Below, piece by piece: positions 17,554 to 23,672 of a DNA stretch of 64,000 nucleotides. Origin of the DNA: Lyngbya sp. HA4199-MV5 (GTDB lineage Bacteria > Cyanobacteriota > Cyanobacteriia > Leptolyngbyales > Leptolyngbyaceae); NCBI GenBank assembly GCA_019359375.1, contig JAHHHL010000009.1, positions 62,001 through 126,000 on the forward strand, in the 5' to 3' direction. The number at the start of each line of letters is the position of its first letter. Positions within the stretch are counted from its first letter, which is position 1. The translations under genes and the position numbers were made by a program. The notes under the pieces are model-generated. The model saw only the letters and a list, made by a program, of their open reading frames with translations, searched no databases and had not been told where the DNA came from.

Positions 17554-18783
17554 TAAGTACAACTCGTCGCTGAAGGGGTCGGAAATCGTTAGGATCAGCA
17601 TAAAGCTGTGGATGACCTATGCGTGGACGTACTTCTCAGATCAAGATCAGTCTAAGCGGGGAATAACGTGAAAGCTTGGAAAGTTTGCTGCGCCGACAGA
17701 AGACCCCTGTTGGGCTGGCAAAACGTGCGCGTGCAATATTGCTCTTAGCCGAGAGAGAGAGGTTTAACCAAACAGCCGAACGGGTGGGCTTGGGAGAACG
17801 CCATCTGCGGAAGTGGGCAAGACGCTTTCTGGCGCAGGGAGTCGAGGGTTTACAAGATCGACCACGACCGGGCAGAGTCCCGGTTTCCCCCCCCTCAAGT
17901 CGCCTTGTACCTGGTTAAAATTGCGTGTGAACTGCCCGATACTCAAGGTCGGTCTCTGTCTCAATGGGATTGCACCAAGTTAGCCCGACAGGTGGTAGTA
18001 GCAGGGTTGGTGGGCAGCATCTCTGCGTCTACGGTCCGCCGGATTTTGAACCACCATCAGCTGAAACCTTGGCGACAGCATCTGTGGTTATCCCCCAAAG
18101 TGCCACGCGACAAAGCCTTTGTCAAATCCATTCGCGAAATGAGCCGCCTCTCTATCCGCAAGCTCAAAGCGCACGAAAGGGTGCTTTGCCTGGATGAGAA
18201 AACCGCTTTGCAGCCCCGTCCACGCAAAGCGGCAACCTTACCATCGAGACCGCAGTCCATCATGAAAGTTGAGCATGAGTATGAACGCCAAGGGGCACTC
18301 AATCTGCTTGCAGCCTTTGATAGTCGTACAGGTAAGGTGTGGGGGCAAACCTATGAACGCAAGCGACAAGTCGAGTTAATCGCCTTTTTGGAGTATCTGG
18401 ACAAACAGATTCCCGTAACCATCACCCAGATTCATGTTGTGCTCGACCATCTCAAGAGGCACAAAGGCAGAAAGGTGCAAGCTTGGTTAGCCCAACATCC
18501 CCGGTTGGTCTTTCGTTTTCCACCCGTGCATTGCTCTTGGATGAATCAAGTAGAACAGTGGTTGAGTATCCTGCAACGCAAGCGCTTGAAAATTGCCAAC
18601 TTTAAGGACAAGCAAGCTTTAGCAGAACGTCTGCAAGCCTTCATCGCCGAGTGGAATGCTCATGCCCACCCCTTGCATTGGACAACCAAGTCAGTCGCAA
18701 AAATCATGGCAAAATGTGATCCTCAACCAACGCCTGCCAAAGCCGCTTGATTGCCGTATCCCTCTGACGGTGGCCTGTACTTA
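17554..18783 (+). mobile_element. IS630-family insertion sequence, apparently flanked by TA
   Basis: Inverted termini CTAAGTACA (17553-17561) and TGTACTTAG (18776-18784), each with TA; encloses an IS630-type HTH + DDE transposase. Confidence 0.7.
17619..18750 (+). pseudogene. IS630-family transposase, disrupted
   Basis: Reading from ATG 17619: MRGRTSQIKISLSGE*RESLESLLRRQKTPVGLAKRARAILLLAE...; in-frame TAA at 17664-17666 and frame change at the C8 run 17887-17894; DDE half (LCLDEKT, HVVLDHLKRHKG, PVHCSWMNQVEQW) open in the next frame. Confidence 0.85.
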
Positions 18784-19154: not shown

Positions 19155-19577
19155 TCAACATAGACTTGTTTCGCAAAGACCCGTGGGTCTTAGTGTTCCA
19201 GCTTTGTCTTTAGAATGTTTACGTTCTTGATGTTCCCTTTCAATTTTTTTCAAGATTTCTCTAATTTCTTGAAATTTCCCTTTAGTTGATGCATCTGAAA
19301 TCGAAATGCATGAATCAAGAGAATCTTGCAAATTTATGTATAACTCTTTTGCAGCTTTTTCCAACTCATTTTCGATCGGCTGTCCAATTTCTTCAAGCGA
19401 AAGTGTAATACTTTCAAGCATATCTATACTTTTCAATATGACTAGACTTGCTCTTTCGTTACCTAATGTTTTACTATCAGACACAAGAGTTTTAGATAAA
19501 GCTGAACGTAACAGGTTTATGTTCACTTCTACAAAATCCAAAGAATCTTCCAAAGCTTTTTGTACTTGAGTATCCAT
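19155..19577 (-). CDS. Small predicted all-helical protein, unknown
   Basis: 140 aa, Leu/Ser/Glu-rich heptad-like pattern; same strand as and downstream of the caspase/STAND gene. Confidence 0.5.
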   Translation of the reverse strand: MDTQVQKALEDSLDFVEVNINLLRSALSKTLVSDSKTLGNERASLVILKSIDMLESITLSLEEIGQPIENELEKAAKELYINLQDSLDSCISISDASTKGKFQEIREILKKIEREHQERKHSKDKAGTLRPTGLCETSLC

Positions 19578-19713: not shown

Positions 19714-22700
19714 TCAAATATTATCGCAAATTTGACGTTCATCTTGGGTCAACTTAAGATTATTTTTTAGATAGAACTTTATCCAGTTGCAGCTCAATAT
19801 TATTGAATCAGCCAGATTTGAGTGGCTATTAATAGAGTCTAAATTCCATATTCTTATTGTTTTGTCATCACTTGCAGAAATTATCAAATTGTTTTTTCGA
19901 TTGAAGCTTACGCTATTTACTGAATTAGAATGCCCACTAATTTTTGTAATAAGTTTTCCATCCATGACTTTCCAAACGTTAATTCCTTGCTCTCCTCCAG
20001 AAGCCAGCATTTGACCATTTGAGCTAAAGCTGATGCTGTAAACTTTGCTTTTGTGCTGAAAAGTTCTTAATTCTTTACCATCAAAAATCCTCCACAACTT
20101 GACAGATGTATCCCAACTAGCAGAAGCGAGTATTTGACCATCAGGACTGAAGCTCACATCCTGAACTCGGTCTTTATGATAAAATATTTTTAGCAATTTG
20201 CCATCAGCAACTCTCCATAATCTAACTGTCTTGTCTGCGCTAGCGGAAGCAATCATCTGACCATCAGGACTAAAACTTACTCCGTACACTCGCTTAGACT
20301 GCTGAAAGCTTTTTAGAAGTTTTCCATCTGCTACACGCCAAAGCTTTACATGCTTATCCCAATCTCCTGTAGCAATTATTTTATTGTCGGAACTAAATTT
20401 AACATTCAAGATAGCAGTATCCTCTCTAAGAGGACGTGGATTTATTTCTTTGATCAGGTTCCCTTTAGTATCCCAAAGCCTGATAGTTTCACCTAAGCCA
20501 ACAGAAGCTATTGTTCTGCTGTCTGAACTAAATGTCACTCCTTGAACACCCTTTCCAGGATTATTACTACTTGATAATAGCTTGCCATCCTGATTCCAAA
20601 TTTTAATAGTGTCATCGAAACTGCCAGATGCAATAATTTTTCCGTCAGGACTAAAACTAGCATCGTTTACTTCTCTAGTGTGTCCCTCTAGACGATTGAC
20701 CTCTTGAGTTTCAGTAATGACTCTTTGAAGTTCACCTGGTGTTTCGTGCTGTCTTTCTCGCAATTGCTTTAAGACTTTTACAGTTGCTATAAGTGCTTTA
20801 AGTTGGTCATTTGTGCCAGCGACTGCCTCAGAATAAGCTATTAGTGCCTTAATTTCTTTTGCTTGTGCGTTTCGTTTTTCAGTTTGAGCCGATAGTGCCG
20901 ATAGGGTTGTTATGGCTGCCAGCACAACAAGTAATGCTCCTGCTACTGTGGCAATCCGAGTTTTTTGTTTCTCAGCTTTTACTCTTGCCACAGATTCATT
21001 AGATCTTTCTGCTTCCGCTTCGGCTCTTGCTTCGGCTTCAATTTTCTCCCCAATCTCTGCTAGCTCTCTTCCCTCTGCTTCTTCTCTCAACCTCCGCTCC
21101 TGCTCCAGTTGCGCCTGAAACTGTCGATCGCGCCTTCTCCTACTCTCCTCAATAAACTCCTGATCAACAGGCATCAGGCGGGGTTGTTTCTTTTCCATCC
21201 ATTCATCGATCGCGGCTAATCTGCCAGCATCGAGGAGGTAGTTTTCGGAGCGATCGTGGTCTTGCCATTCGTGGCGGTAGATTTCCAGGCGTTGTTGGAG
21301 GCGAATGTCGTCCCGGTTTTCGTCAATCCAGCCTTGAATAAGTTTGGATTCGGATAAGAGTGCCTCATGTGCTACTTCAACCGTTTTGTCATCGGCTACG
21401 AGGAGGCGTTGATAGATGAGGCTACCGATGATGCGATTGAGTTGTTCTTGTGAGGTGGCGATCGCGCGTAGGCGTTCCCAGTTTGCGCGTCGGCGAGTGA
21501 CTTCGCCGGCATCCCCAATCTGGACTAATTCGCTAATCAGGTCTCGGACAAAGGTTTGGTCGGTAGGAGAAAGGCTGGTGTAAAACTGGTCTGCCCAACG
21601 CTGTAAAGCACCTTTTACGCCGTCGATCGCGTTGTAGCTTTGAAGCGTCAGCAGTCGCGATCTGCCATCCGTTGAAATGCAATTGTCCCAAAGCTGCATT
21701 AGAGCATATTGCAACAGCGGCATTGCGCCCGGTTGGTTCACCACATCATTTACAATGCGCGATACCAGTCCTGGTTCAAAGCTTACTTCATGCAGTGCCG
21801 CTGGACAAATAATCGAATCCTCCAGTTCTGCCACCAGTTTGGCTTCAGTGAGAGGCGTGACCATATAGGTTGTCGGGGCGGTACTGTTGATCAGGTCAGC
21901 AGATTCTTGAAACTTGGCGCACCGATCGAGAAAATCGCCGCGCATGGCAACAATGATGCGAGTTTGCCTGGTAGGGTTGTTGGTTTCGTCGTTCAACCGC
22001 TTGATAAAGGTGCGCTGCTCTTCCTCATTGGGGCAGAGGGTAAACAGTTCCTCAAATTGATCGACAAACAGCACAACAGGCTTGTCGTTTGAGTGCAGTT
22101 GTTCCAGCGTCTGGGTTAGAACCTGGAGGGGATACTGTCCCGGTGTGATGATTTTGATCTGCCAGTCGTGACTACCGGGAAGACGATCGCCCTCCAGTTC
22201 AGGCAGCAGTCCCGCTTTGACCAGTGACGATTTGCCGCAGCCAGAGGGACCAATCACGGATAGGAAACGGTTTTTATCCAGGCGATCGAGCAATGCCCTT
22301 ACTGCCTGTCCGCGTCCAAAAAAGTAGTCTGCCTGATACTGCTCAAACGCTTTCAACCCCATATAAGGATTGGCAGGGTTGAATGTAGATTCCGGGGTTG
22401 GCACAGGTTGCCGTTGCTTGTAGCGCACCAGCGTAATGGAGCGTCCCCAGCCCATCCGCAGCGGTTCCTGGCGCGAGTTTTGCAGTTCATCCCCAATCAC
22501 GTCGAAGAGGCGATCGCCACTAATCCAACCGCTTCCCGACGTAACGCTAGCGGGAGAGAGTCCTTTCAGCACGGCAGCCGTGAGTAAGCTGTGGTGCTCA
22601 CCCTCGTAAGCCTTGCTAGAGCCGCGACAGGCGGTAATCAGGTAATAGTCACGCTCATAGCCAAAGGTAAAATCTCGCCGTACCATGTCGCTTTCGAGAA

Positions 22701-23181
22701 AGGCACCAGAGTTGCAGCAGTCTAAAATCACGACCAGACTGCTGAATTTGTGGTGATTGATGAGCTTGTTTAGATCAGCCAGAGAAATGCCGTTTTTTTC
22801 AGCGATGACTTGCCCTGCGGCATTCAATTCGACCTGGCAATCCGACGGCGCGAGATACCCTTCTGACGTGCCAGAGAGTGGCTGCACTTTGCTAAACCCG
22901 TGCCCGCTGTAATAAAGCAGCACTTCACTACCAGCCGCATCTTGTAGAAATTTTTGGAGTTCACGCACCAGAGTTTCGTTAGTCAGCGGTTTGCGAATGA
23001 CGTTGCCCAGATCTTTTTGTCCTGCTTCGCGCCGGAAGGGCAGCCGCATCACTTGATTAAATTCGCCGTATTGGTCGAGAATGTCTGCGATCGCGTTGGC
23101 ATTCTGAACGGGCGATTCTAAACTCTGGAAGGACGCGGTTGTATACTCAGCGATGCCAATAATCAGGGCGTAACGGGCCAT
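19714..23181 (-). CDS. Caspase-like peptidase (C14) + STAND-type P-loop NTPase + TM segment + WD40 repeats
   Basis: His/Cys dyad motifs LLYYSGHGF and VVILDCCNSGAF; Walker A SVIGPSGCGKSSLVKAG; Walker B-like PVVLFVDQFEELF; TM TRIATVAGALLVVLAAITTLSAL; at least six WD40 units (VNDASFSPDGKIIASGSFDDTIKIWN etc.). Confidence 0.92.
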   Translation of the reverse strand: MARYALIIGIAEYTTASFQSLESPVQNANAIADILDQYGEFNQVMRLPFRREAGQKDLGNVIRKPLTNETLVRELQKFLQDAAGSEVLLYYSGHGFSKVQPLSGTSEGYLAPSDCQVELNAAGQVIAEKNGISLADLNKLINHHKFSSLVVILDCCNSGAFLESDMVRRDFTFGYERDYYLITACRGSSKAYEGEHHSLLTAAVLKGLSPASVTSGSGWISGDRLFDVIGDELQNSRQEPLRMGWGRSITLVRYKQRQPVPTPESTFNPANPYMGLKAFEQYQADYFFGRGQAVRALLDRLDKNRFLSVIGPSGCGKSSLVKAGLLPELEGDRLPGSHDWQIKIITPGQYPLQVLTQTLEQLHSNDKPVVLFVDQFEELFTLCPNEEEQRTFIKRLNDETNNPTRQTRIIVAMRGDFLDRCAKFQESADLINSTAPTTYMVTPLTEAKLVAELEDSIICPAALHEVSFEPGLVSRIVNDVVNQPGAMPLLQYALMQLWDNCISTDGRSRLLTLQSYNAIDGVKGALQRWADQFYTSLSPTDQTFVRDLISELVQIGDAGEVTRRRANWERLRAIATSQEQLNRIIGSLIYQRLLVADDKTVEVAHEALLSESKLIQGWIDENRDDIRLQQRLEIYRHEWQDHDRSENYLLDAGRLAAIDEWMEKKQPRLMPVDQEFIEESRRRRDRQFQAQLEQERRLREEAEGRELAEIGEKIEAEARAEAEAERSNESVARVKAEKQKTRIATVAGALLVVLAAITTLSALSAQTEKRNAQAKEIKALIAYSEAVAGTNDQLKALIATVKVLKQLRERQHETPGELQRVITETQEVNRLEGHTREVNDASFSPDGKIIASGSFDDTIKIWNQDGKLLSSSNNPGKGVQGVTFSSDSRTIASVGLGETIRLWDTKGNLIKEINPRPLREDTAILNVKFSSDNKIIATGDWDKHVKLWRVADGKLLKSFQQSKRVYGVSFSPDGQMIASASADKTVRLWRVADGKLLKIFYHKDRVQDVSFSPDGQILASASWDTSVKLWRIFDGKELRTFQHKSKVYSISFSSNGQMLASGGEQGINVWKVMDGKLITKISGHSNSVNSVSFNRKNNLIISASDDKTIRIWNLDSINSHSNLADSIILSCNWIKFYLKNNLKLTQDERQICDNI

Positions 23182-23306
23182 GTTGGTAGATACAAGAGGA
23201 GCTTAAACACTTCTAAGCTACTCAGATATACTGAGAGCGTCCAGAAATCACATAAAAATTTGTTAAAGAGTAAAATTCGTCCTAACAAATTCTACTGAGG
23301 TAGCTA

Positions 23307-23672
23307 ATGTCTGATGTAAAGCGTTTCCAATTTGAGGAGAACGGTGAGGCATTCGAGATTTTTATTGAAGCAACATCATCGACGGACATTCCGGCGCGGG
23401 CGATCGATGATGACGATCCTGGCGGCATGGGCGTTGTCAATGATATCAGTGTCAGAATGCAACAAGCACAGAGCATGATTCGAGGCTACACGCTCTATGC
23501 ACTCAATGCCTTTAAGAATTTGGGTGATGCCAATGTGGAAGAAATCAGCCTGAAGTTTGGCTTGAAAATTGGCGGTAAAACGGGTATTCCTTACATCACA
23601 GAAGGGTCTGCCGATTGCAATCTCGAAGTTTCAGTGAAATGCTCCTTTCCGAGCAAAAATAATTCGCTTTGA
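23307..23672 (+). CDS. Trypco1 (trypsin-co-occurring domain 1 / CU044_2847-type) protein
   Basis: VKRFQFEENGEAFEIFIEA ... FKNLGDANVEEISLKFGLKIGGKTGIPYITEGSADCNLEVSVKCSF fits the Trypco1 pattern (LKFGLK...G......A.L.V...). Confidence 0.75.
   Translation: MSDVKRFQFEENGEAFEIFIEATSSTDIPARAIDDDDPGGMGVVNDISVRMQQAQSMIRGYTLYALNAFKNLGDANVEEISLKFGLKIGGKTGIPYITEGSADCNLEVSVKCSFPSKNNSL

What the first reader, a model, noticed from the sequence alone, without database searches (positions are those of the whole stretch)
19714..23672. Divergent caspase-STAND-WD40 / Trypco1 pair: candidate conflict or programmed-death module
Seen: one 1155-aa ORF combines a caspase-like domain with His and Cys motifs (YYSGHGF, LDCCNSG), a Walker A/B NTPase, a TM segment and WD40 repeats. 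A 121-aa ORF starts 125 bp away on the opposite strand and has a Trypco1-type pattern. Established: caspase-STAND-WD40 proteins are common in filamentous cyanobacteria, and Trypco domains were described by comparative genomics as protease-linked components of NTP-dependent conflict systems. Inference: the WD40 and NTPase parts sense and oligomerise, and the small protein is a substrate, adaptor or inhibitor of the caspase domain.
Basis: partly seen in the sequence, partly recalled or inferred. Interest (0 to 1): 0.8.

Follow-up and report, generated by a model that had tools for sequence, protein, structure and literature searches.

The report
Swappable caspase cassette with fixed partner
Many cyanobacteria carry a caspase-like protease gene back to back with a small partner gene, and the two are inherited as a fixed unit while the sensor part of the protease gene is swapped out, which makes this a likely, but untested, cell-death or anti-invader device.

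Summary
Window 19714-23181(-) encodes C14 caspase p20, nSTAND1 NTPase, one TM segment and seven WD40 repeats. Window 23307-23672(+), 125 bp away and divergent, is a true Trypco1 (65 bits, cut-off 24.6). The pairing is conserved: 74 of the 80 nearest Trypco1 relatives in GTDB genomes have a divergent caspase ORF (chance about 0.02), and so do all five plasmid copies found.

The new part is modularity. Trypco1 and p20 form the constant unit; the STAND and C-terminal module behind p20 are exchanged (WD40, HisKA, cyclase, SpoIIE, FGE and others). Close relatives show at least 5 STAND exchanges and no Trypco1 exchange. Trypco1 distances track p20 (r 0.89) better than p20 tracks the STAND on its own chain (r 0.69). 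Catalytic His and Cys are invariant in 80/80.

Published text pairs Trypco1 with trypsin and treats trypsin and caspase pairings as mutually exclusive. Here one Trypco1 subfamily is caspase-linked and divergent, others trypsin-linked and co-directional. Most likely Trypco1 binds and controls the caspase domain; inhibitor, cofactor or substrate is not settled, and a defence role is inference. New variant of a known kind.

The parts
19714..23181 (-). Caspase(C14)-nSTAND1-TM-WD40 protein, 1155 aa
22447..23181 (-). Caspase p20 domain (aa 1-245), catalytic H94 (YYSGHG) and C156 (LDCCNSG); the exchange-resistant part
   Evidence: PF00656 59.1 bits; AF2 pLDDT 87.6; H94/C156/D154 invariant 80/80; PDB fold match MALT1/metacaspase
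21244..22368 (-). nSTAND1 NTPase domain (aa 272-646) with Walker A GPSGCGKSS and Walker B VVLFVDQF
   Evidence: PF20703 358 bits
20899..20955 (-). Single hydrophobic (probable TM) segment, aa 743-761
   Evidence: Kyte-Doolittle 2.24 over 19 residues, net charge +3 before and +1 after
19804..20703 (-). WD40 propeller, seven repeats (about aa 827-1126)
   Evidence: PF00400, 7 stretches
23182..23306 (.). 125-bp divergent intergenic region; block CAGATATACTGAG (23223-23235), holding a -10-like TATACT on the + strand, is identical in the window, L063 and L064
   Evidence: function not tested
23307..23672 (+). Trypco1 protein, 121 aa, caspase-linked subfamily (R59, Y61, A68-F69-K70, P95, C112)
   Evidence: PF19493 65.2 bits

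Best explanation
The two divergent genes are one functional unit: a modular caspase-STAND switch whose constant head is the pair Trypco1 plus caspase p20. Shown by sequence: the pair is conserved, the two halves are inherited together, the protease active site is kept intact, and the NTPase and sensor behind it are repeatedly exchanged. Inferred: Trypco1 binds the p20 domain, most likely through the conserved helix face R59/Y61/F69/K70, and holds or sets its activity as a dedicated regulatory subunit (inhibitor, gate or cofactor). When the C-terminal module (here the WD40 propeller) meets its trigger, the nSTAND1 domain oligomerises, p20 molecules are brought together and released from Trypco1 control, and they cleave cell proteins after basic residues, or cleave Trypco1 itself, leading to dormancy or death of the infected or damaged cell. 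Trigger, oligomerisation, target and outcome are inference from known STAND and orthocaspase biology; none was tested.
For: 74 of 80 nearest Trypco1 relatives have a divergent caspase ORF. The six exceptions are three truncated Trypco1 remnants (L091, L149, L158), one at a contig end (L093), one broken locus (L150) and one intact orphan (L136). All 5 plasmid copies are paired. Trypco1-p20 distance correlation is 0.89 over 80 pairs, permutation p 0.0005, against Trypco1-STAND 0.78 and p20-STAND 0.69 on the 69 pairs with a STAND; the excess of T-p20 over p20-STAND is 0.14-0.26 by bootstrap. Among 88 locus pairs with p20 at least 85% identical, Trypco1 is below 70% in 0 and STAND in 20; minimum exchanges STAND 5, Trypco1 0. 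L162/L139 share a 1.3-kb, 90% identical DNA block that runs from the start of STAND to the end of Trypco1 and stops at both ends. Variable C-termini. Active site invariant 80/80. In both partner classes the Trypco1 gene abuts the peptidase-coding 5' end of its partner.
Against: No binding, cleavage or phenotype data exist. The Trypco1 model is weak (pLDDT 62) and has no significant PDB fold match. Physical linkage alone would give correlated trees, so correlation is not proof of contact. Two caspases of the same broad clade have no adjacent Trypco1 (L213, L214), and three genomes keep the ~1750-aa caspase without the cobD-type Trypco1, so Trypco1 is not strictly required for survival with such a caspase. 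No K/R position is conserved in both caspase-linked and trypsin-linked Trypco1, which speaks against one shared pseudosubstrate site.
Confidence: 0.6

Rival explanations
1. Trypco1 is the dedicated substrate or pro-effector: active p20 cleaves it and a released fragment signals or kills, as a pro-nuclease does in Canu and in Hachiman/AVAST.
For: Precedent of proteases with a fixed co-encoded substrate and of trypsin-caspase swapping around it (PMC12799240). Trypco1-p20 co-inheritance. Trypco1 and Pepco partner two unrelated protease folds; metacaspases and orthocaspases cut after basic residues as trypsins do.
Against: No enzyme-like, TM or toxin-like feature found; no K/R column common to both partner classes; the conserved R59 lies in a predicted helix. 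Weak Foldseek resemblances to hairpins of pore-forming toxins are not significant (E 0.5 or more).
Confidence: 0.22
2. Toxin-antitoxin-like pair: the protease is harmful and Trypco1 is its neutraliser, kept mainly to stabilise itself or the plasmid or locus that carries it.
For: Found on conjugative and mobilizable plasmids. Orphan copies of this subfamily are mostly truncated remnants, and the window locus is patchy inside the genus.
Against: The large STAND plus diverse C-terminal modules would be superfluous for simple addiction; caspases of the clade survive without an adjacent Trypco1.
Confidence: 0.12
3. The two genes only share a divergent promoter region and are neighbours by descent, with no physical interaction.
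For: Within well-sampled clades (Nostoc, Microcoleus) most pairs are inherited vertically.
Against: The pair sits in different flanks, on chromosomes and plasmids, in many genera; Trypco1 is never exchanged while the rest of the caspase gene is; a distant relative, Pepco, independently sits directly upstream of caspases, once in this same genome.
Confidence: 0.06

Closest known systems
Trypco1 in VMAP MoxR-vWA ternary conflict systems (Kaur et al. 2020, PMC7159879)
   Same: Same small domain (PF19493), encoded next to a gene whose N-terminal domain is a peptidase joined to regulatory or STAND parts.
   Different: There the partner is a trypsin-like peptidase and the caspase pairing is shown as mutually exclusive. 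Here the partner is a caspase, the genes are divergent, the Trypco1 subfamily is distinct, and no VMAP, vWA or MoxR gene was seen among the neighbours scanned.
EACC1-caspase two-gene system (Kaur et al. 2020, system 4) and EACC2 system (Kaur et al. 2021, PMC8195603)
   Same: Small constant gene plus a caspase with a highly variable C-terminal module; same logic.
   Different: EACC1 is a TM protein, mainly actinobacterial. Here the constant component is Trypco1, without TM, the genes are divergent, and the members found are cyanobacterial. The EACC1-type caspase model scores 80.6, below its cut-off of 140.
Canu (caspase-nuclease) and nuclease-trypsin pairs in Hachiman/AVAST (PMC12799240)
   Same: A fixed small partner travels with a protease that is a caspase in some systems and a trypsin in others; the protease is fused to other defence parts.
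   Different: The Canu partner is an MBL-type pro-nuclease; Trypco1 is not an enzyme by any profile.
Pepco-caspase pair (PF24393), present in this genome at G000:C4
   Same: Small domain distantly matching Trypco1, directly upstream of a caspase with variable C-terminus (FGE, GUN4).
   Different: Co-directional, nearly overlapping genes; caspase without nSTAND1; separate Pfam family.
Cyanobacterial orthocaspases with WD40 (PMC8283722)
   Same: The caspase protein itself belongs here; WD40 is the commonest accessory domain.
   Different: That survey does not mention Trypco1 (0 hits) or exchange behind the p20 domain.

Membership tests
Trypco1 (PF19493) | Profile score above the curated cut-off | tested here: met
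   65.2 bits, cut-off 24.6
Trypco1 (PF19493) | Encoded next to a trypsin-like peptidase | tested here: not met
   Partner is a C14 caspase; order-wide 24 trypsin-linked, 14 caspase-linked, 3 Pepco-caspase
VMAP MoxR-vWA ternary system | MoxR, vWA and VMAP genes nearby | tested here: not met
   None among the immediate neighbours or among ten larger window ORFs between 3.3 and 37.8 kb; smaller ORFs and the rest of the window were not scanned
EACC1-caspase system | Small TM-containing EACC1 gene upstream | tested here: not met
   Small gene is Trypco1; no hydrophobic segment in its sequence
EACC1-caspase system | Caspase with many alternative C-terminal domains | tested here: met
   More than ten C-terminal types across homologues
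Orthocaspase / C14 caspase | His-Cys dyad | tested here: met
   H94 and C156 in the window and in 80/80 paired homologues
Orthocaspase / C14 caspase | Two acidic S1-pocket residues (Asp95 and Asp211 of TbMCA2) | tested here: inconclusive
   D154, adjoining the catalytic Cys motif, invariant; D27, placed by alignment as the alpha1 acid, is N in the window and L063 but D in 77/79 (papers)
nSTAND1 NTPase | Profile match with Walker motifs | tested here: met
   PF20703 358 bits; Walker A and B in the sequence
Canu | Adjacent MBL-type pro-nuclease | tested here: not met
   None among the neighbours scanned
Anti-phage defence system | Protection against phage, or programmed death on infection | not testable with these tools
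   No experiment possible; PADLOC gives a caspase match only

The most novel reading that the evidence does not exclude
Trypco1 plus caspase p20 is a portable protease-with-its-own-control cassette that cyanobacteria plug onto interchangeable NTPases and sensors. Trypco1/Pepco proteins would then be a general class of dedicated protein regulators of both caspases and trypsins in bacterial immunity, with subfamilies matched to each protease fold.
Probability: 0.4. Interest if true: 0.78.

Novelty: new variant of a known kind. Interest (0 to 1): 0.62.

Why it matters
Cyanobacterial caspase homologues have been studied for years without a known natural partner. A small protein that stays fixed to the caspase domain while all else is exchanged is the obvious candidate for what holds these proteases in check or is cut by them, and it can be tested with two short genes. 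It also suggests that Trypco1 marks peptidases in general, not trypsins, and that the divergent arrangement may have kept the pair out of earlier neighbourhood surveys that required conserved gene direction.

Tried and rejected
(1) Pair split in trans: a cobD-adjacent Trypco1 (17 genomes) occurs only in genomes with the ~1750-aa caspase (17 of 20 against 0 of 22; genus level 9/9 against 0/10). On a SerA tree this is only 1-2 independent events, so it is not evidence of function; kept as a lead. (2) A shared pseudosubstrate Arg/Lys in Trypco1 for both protease classes: no such column. (3) Third gene: the 140-aa ORF 19155-19577 has no homologue in 41 related genomes and no family; not part of the system. 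(4) Trypco1 fold match: none significant. (5) Phage or viral copies: none in viral contigs or phages. (6) Recently duplicated, near-identical WD40 repeats as a diversification signal: no direct DNA repeats found. (7) Defence island around the window locus: the ten larger ORFs scanned are housekeeping, metabolic, transport and cell-wall genes or have no Pfam hit.
Full report
What was checked. The 1155-aa protein is a C14 caspase p20 domain (59.1 bits, cut-off 21.4), an nSTAND1 NTPase (358 bits), one hydrophobic segment (aa 743-761) and seven WD40 repeats. The 121-aa protein is a true Trypco1 (65.2 bits, cut-off 24.6; NCBIfam CU044_2847 family). The gap is 125 bp, divergent. The p20 model (AlphaFold2, pLDDT 87.6) has the clan CD fold, closest to MALT1 and metacaspases.

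Is the pairing more than chance? A scan of one genome for each of 85,462 prokaryote species with a Trypco1 alignment gave 270 relatives; the best 80 were fetched, all cyanobacterial. In 74 of them a caspase ORF lies divergently upstream, mostly 65-150 bp away. With about 6.5 caspases per 6.5-Mb genome, chance predicts about 0.02. The exceptions are three truncated Trypco1 remnants, one contig edge, one broken locus and one intact orphan. Caveats: the query alignment was built mostly from caspase-linked sequences, so 74/80 describes that subfamily, not Trypco1 at large; and many of the 80 are close relatives. The less biased count is that of the window's order. Among 69 Trypco1 or Pepco loci, 24 abut a trypsin gene, all co-directional; 14 abut a p20 caspase, 13 of them divergent; 3 Pepco-type abut a caspase co-directionally; 28 have neither, 17 of which are one orthologous group, several of them next to cobD. 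Partner type and orientation go together (Fisher p 3e-9). Five of five plasmid matches (Acaryochloris, Gloeothece, Nostoc), four of the plasmids typed conjugative or mobilizable, have the divergent caspase. None was found in viral or phage collections.

What is constant and what varies. Behind p20 the partner protein ends in WD40 (two forms: about 1150-1200 aa with one TM segment, or about 1400 aa without), HisKA-HATPase, guanylate cyclase, SpoIIE phosphatase, FGE-sulfatase domain, NfeD, pentapeptide repeats, a phycobilisome-like domain, TPR, GUN4, or NB-ARC instead of nSTAND1. On the p20 tree this needs at least 16 changes of C-terminal type, with labels partly assigned by length. In very close relatives the break lies just behind p20. 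L162 (WD40) and L139 (FGE) share Trypco1 at 94% and p20 at 95% but STAND at 45%; at DNA level the 90% identical block runs 1.3 kb, from the start of STAND to the end of Trypco1, and stops at both ends. L151 and L152 share Trypco1 98%, p20 97%, STAND 59%. Of 88 pairs of loci with p20 at least 85% identical, 20 have a STAND below 70% and none has a Trypco1 below 70%; minimum independent exchanges are 5 for STAND and 0 for Trypco1. Distance correlations agree: Trypco1-p20 0.89, Trypco1-STAND 0.78, p20-STAND 0.69, the excess of the first over the third being 0.14-0.26 by bootstrap. So Trypco1, on a separate gene, follows the caspase domain more closely than the NTPase on the same polypeptide does. 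Linkage is part of the reason. The divergent layout puts Trypco1 and p20 side by side and leaves the 3' part of the caspase gene free to recombine. The trypsin-linked class also has Trypco1 directly before the peptidase-coding end. Of nine genomes with two pairs, eight could be tested, and the paralogous Trypco1 proteins follow their own caspase in 14 of 16 comparisons; the two misses are near ties.

What Trypco1 may do. The catalytic His and Cys of p20 are invariant in 80/80, so the protease is under selection to stay active. In the caspase-linked subfamily R59, Y61, A68-F69-K70, G93, P95 and C112 are conserved; R59, Y61, A68-F69-K70, P95 and C112 are shared with the cobD-type group and not with the trypsin-linked group. 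This marks a caspase-specific face, mainly on the predicted helix 41-70 (low confidence). No basic residue is conserved in both partner classes, which speaks against one shared pseudosubstrate site. I therefore favour a regulatory subunit that binds p20 (inhibitor, gate or cofactor) over a dedicated substrate, but the margin is modest and no binding data exist. Metacaspases and orthocaspases cut after Arg/Lys through two Asp residues; the window protein keeps D154 but has Asn at the position aligned with the other, where 77 of 79 homologues have Asp, so its own P1 preference is open.

Locus history. On the lyase side, the sister species Stenomitos rutilans (G036) keeps only the C-terminal half of Trypco1 next to a transposase fragment, with no caspase; another sister (G038) has the lyase with neither gene. 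An IS630-like transposase also lies beside the caspase gene in the window. The pair is thus an accessory, mobile element. The 140-aa ORF at 19155-19577 is unique to this genome and not part of it.

Comparison with what is known. Kaur et al. 2020 named Trypco1 for its co-occurrence with trypsin in VMAP ternary systems and describe the Trypco-trypsin and hydrolase-caspase pairings as mutually exclusive; their EACC1 system has the same two-gene logic, constant small component plus caspase with variable C-terminus, but a different, membrane-spanning small component. A 2024 paper lists Trypco1 as an adapter and mentions trypsin- or caspase-like peptidases in adjacent genes at some DGR loci. Only these two papers in the library mention Trypco1. 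The 2021 follow-up states that its neighbourhood filter required conserved gene directionality, which would drop a divergent pair; whether the 2020 survey did the same was not checked, and its source tables could not be read, so an unremarked listing there is possible. Canu and the nuclease-trypsin pairs give an experimental precedent for a fixed partner that travels with either a caspase or a trypsin. In this genome a Pepco-caspase operon (G000:C4) is a second, distant instance of the same logic.

Verdict. This is a new variant of a known kind: a cyanobacterial, divergent Trypco1-caspase conflict-type module in which the Trypco1-p20 head is fixed and the NTPase and sensor are exchanged. Biochemistry, trigger and biological role remain untested.

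Noticed in passing
G000:C4:40795-41778(-), locus L211:6009-8336: Second small-domain/caspase pair in the same genome: Pepco (PF24393, 114.9 bits; Trypco1 23.8 bits, just below cut-off) directly upstream of a caspase-FGE protein, co-directional; same layout in two other Stenomitos genomes (L209, L210).
   Followed up: partly
G000:C16:73366-73881(+) and G000:C3:75249(+): A stand-alone Trypco1 orthologue (next to cobD in several genomes) occurs only in genomes with a ~1750-aa caspase-nSTAND1-WD40 encoded elsewhere: 17/20 against 0/22. The tree shows only 1-2 independent events.
   Followed up: yes
window 17676-18750: IS630-like transposase (DDE_3) directly beyond the caspase gene; a transposase fragment also sits at the decayed sister locus in Stenomitos rutilans (L091).
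   Followed up: partly
window 23223-23235: CAGATATACTGAG between the divergent genes is identical in the window, L063 and L064, although the rest of the spacer differs.
   Followed up: no
window p20 residue 27: The position aligned with the conserved S1-pocket acid of helix alpha1 is Asn in the window and L063, Asp in 77 of 79 homologues; possible change of cleavage specificity.
   Followed up: no
L086-L143, single-propeller WD40 and TPR variants: A single TM segment with more positive charge on its N-terminal side occurs in the WD40-1150-aa and TPR variants, and none in HisKA, cyclase, SpoIIE, FGE or long WD40 variants. The sensor may lie outside the cytoplasm in the first group.
   Followed up: partly
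L075:2019-6585: Trypsin-nSTAND1-WD40 protein with upstream Trypco1: the same architecture as the window protein with the caspase replaced by a trypsin.
   Followed up: partly
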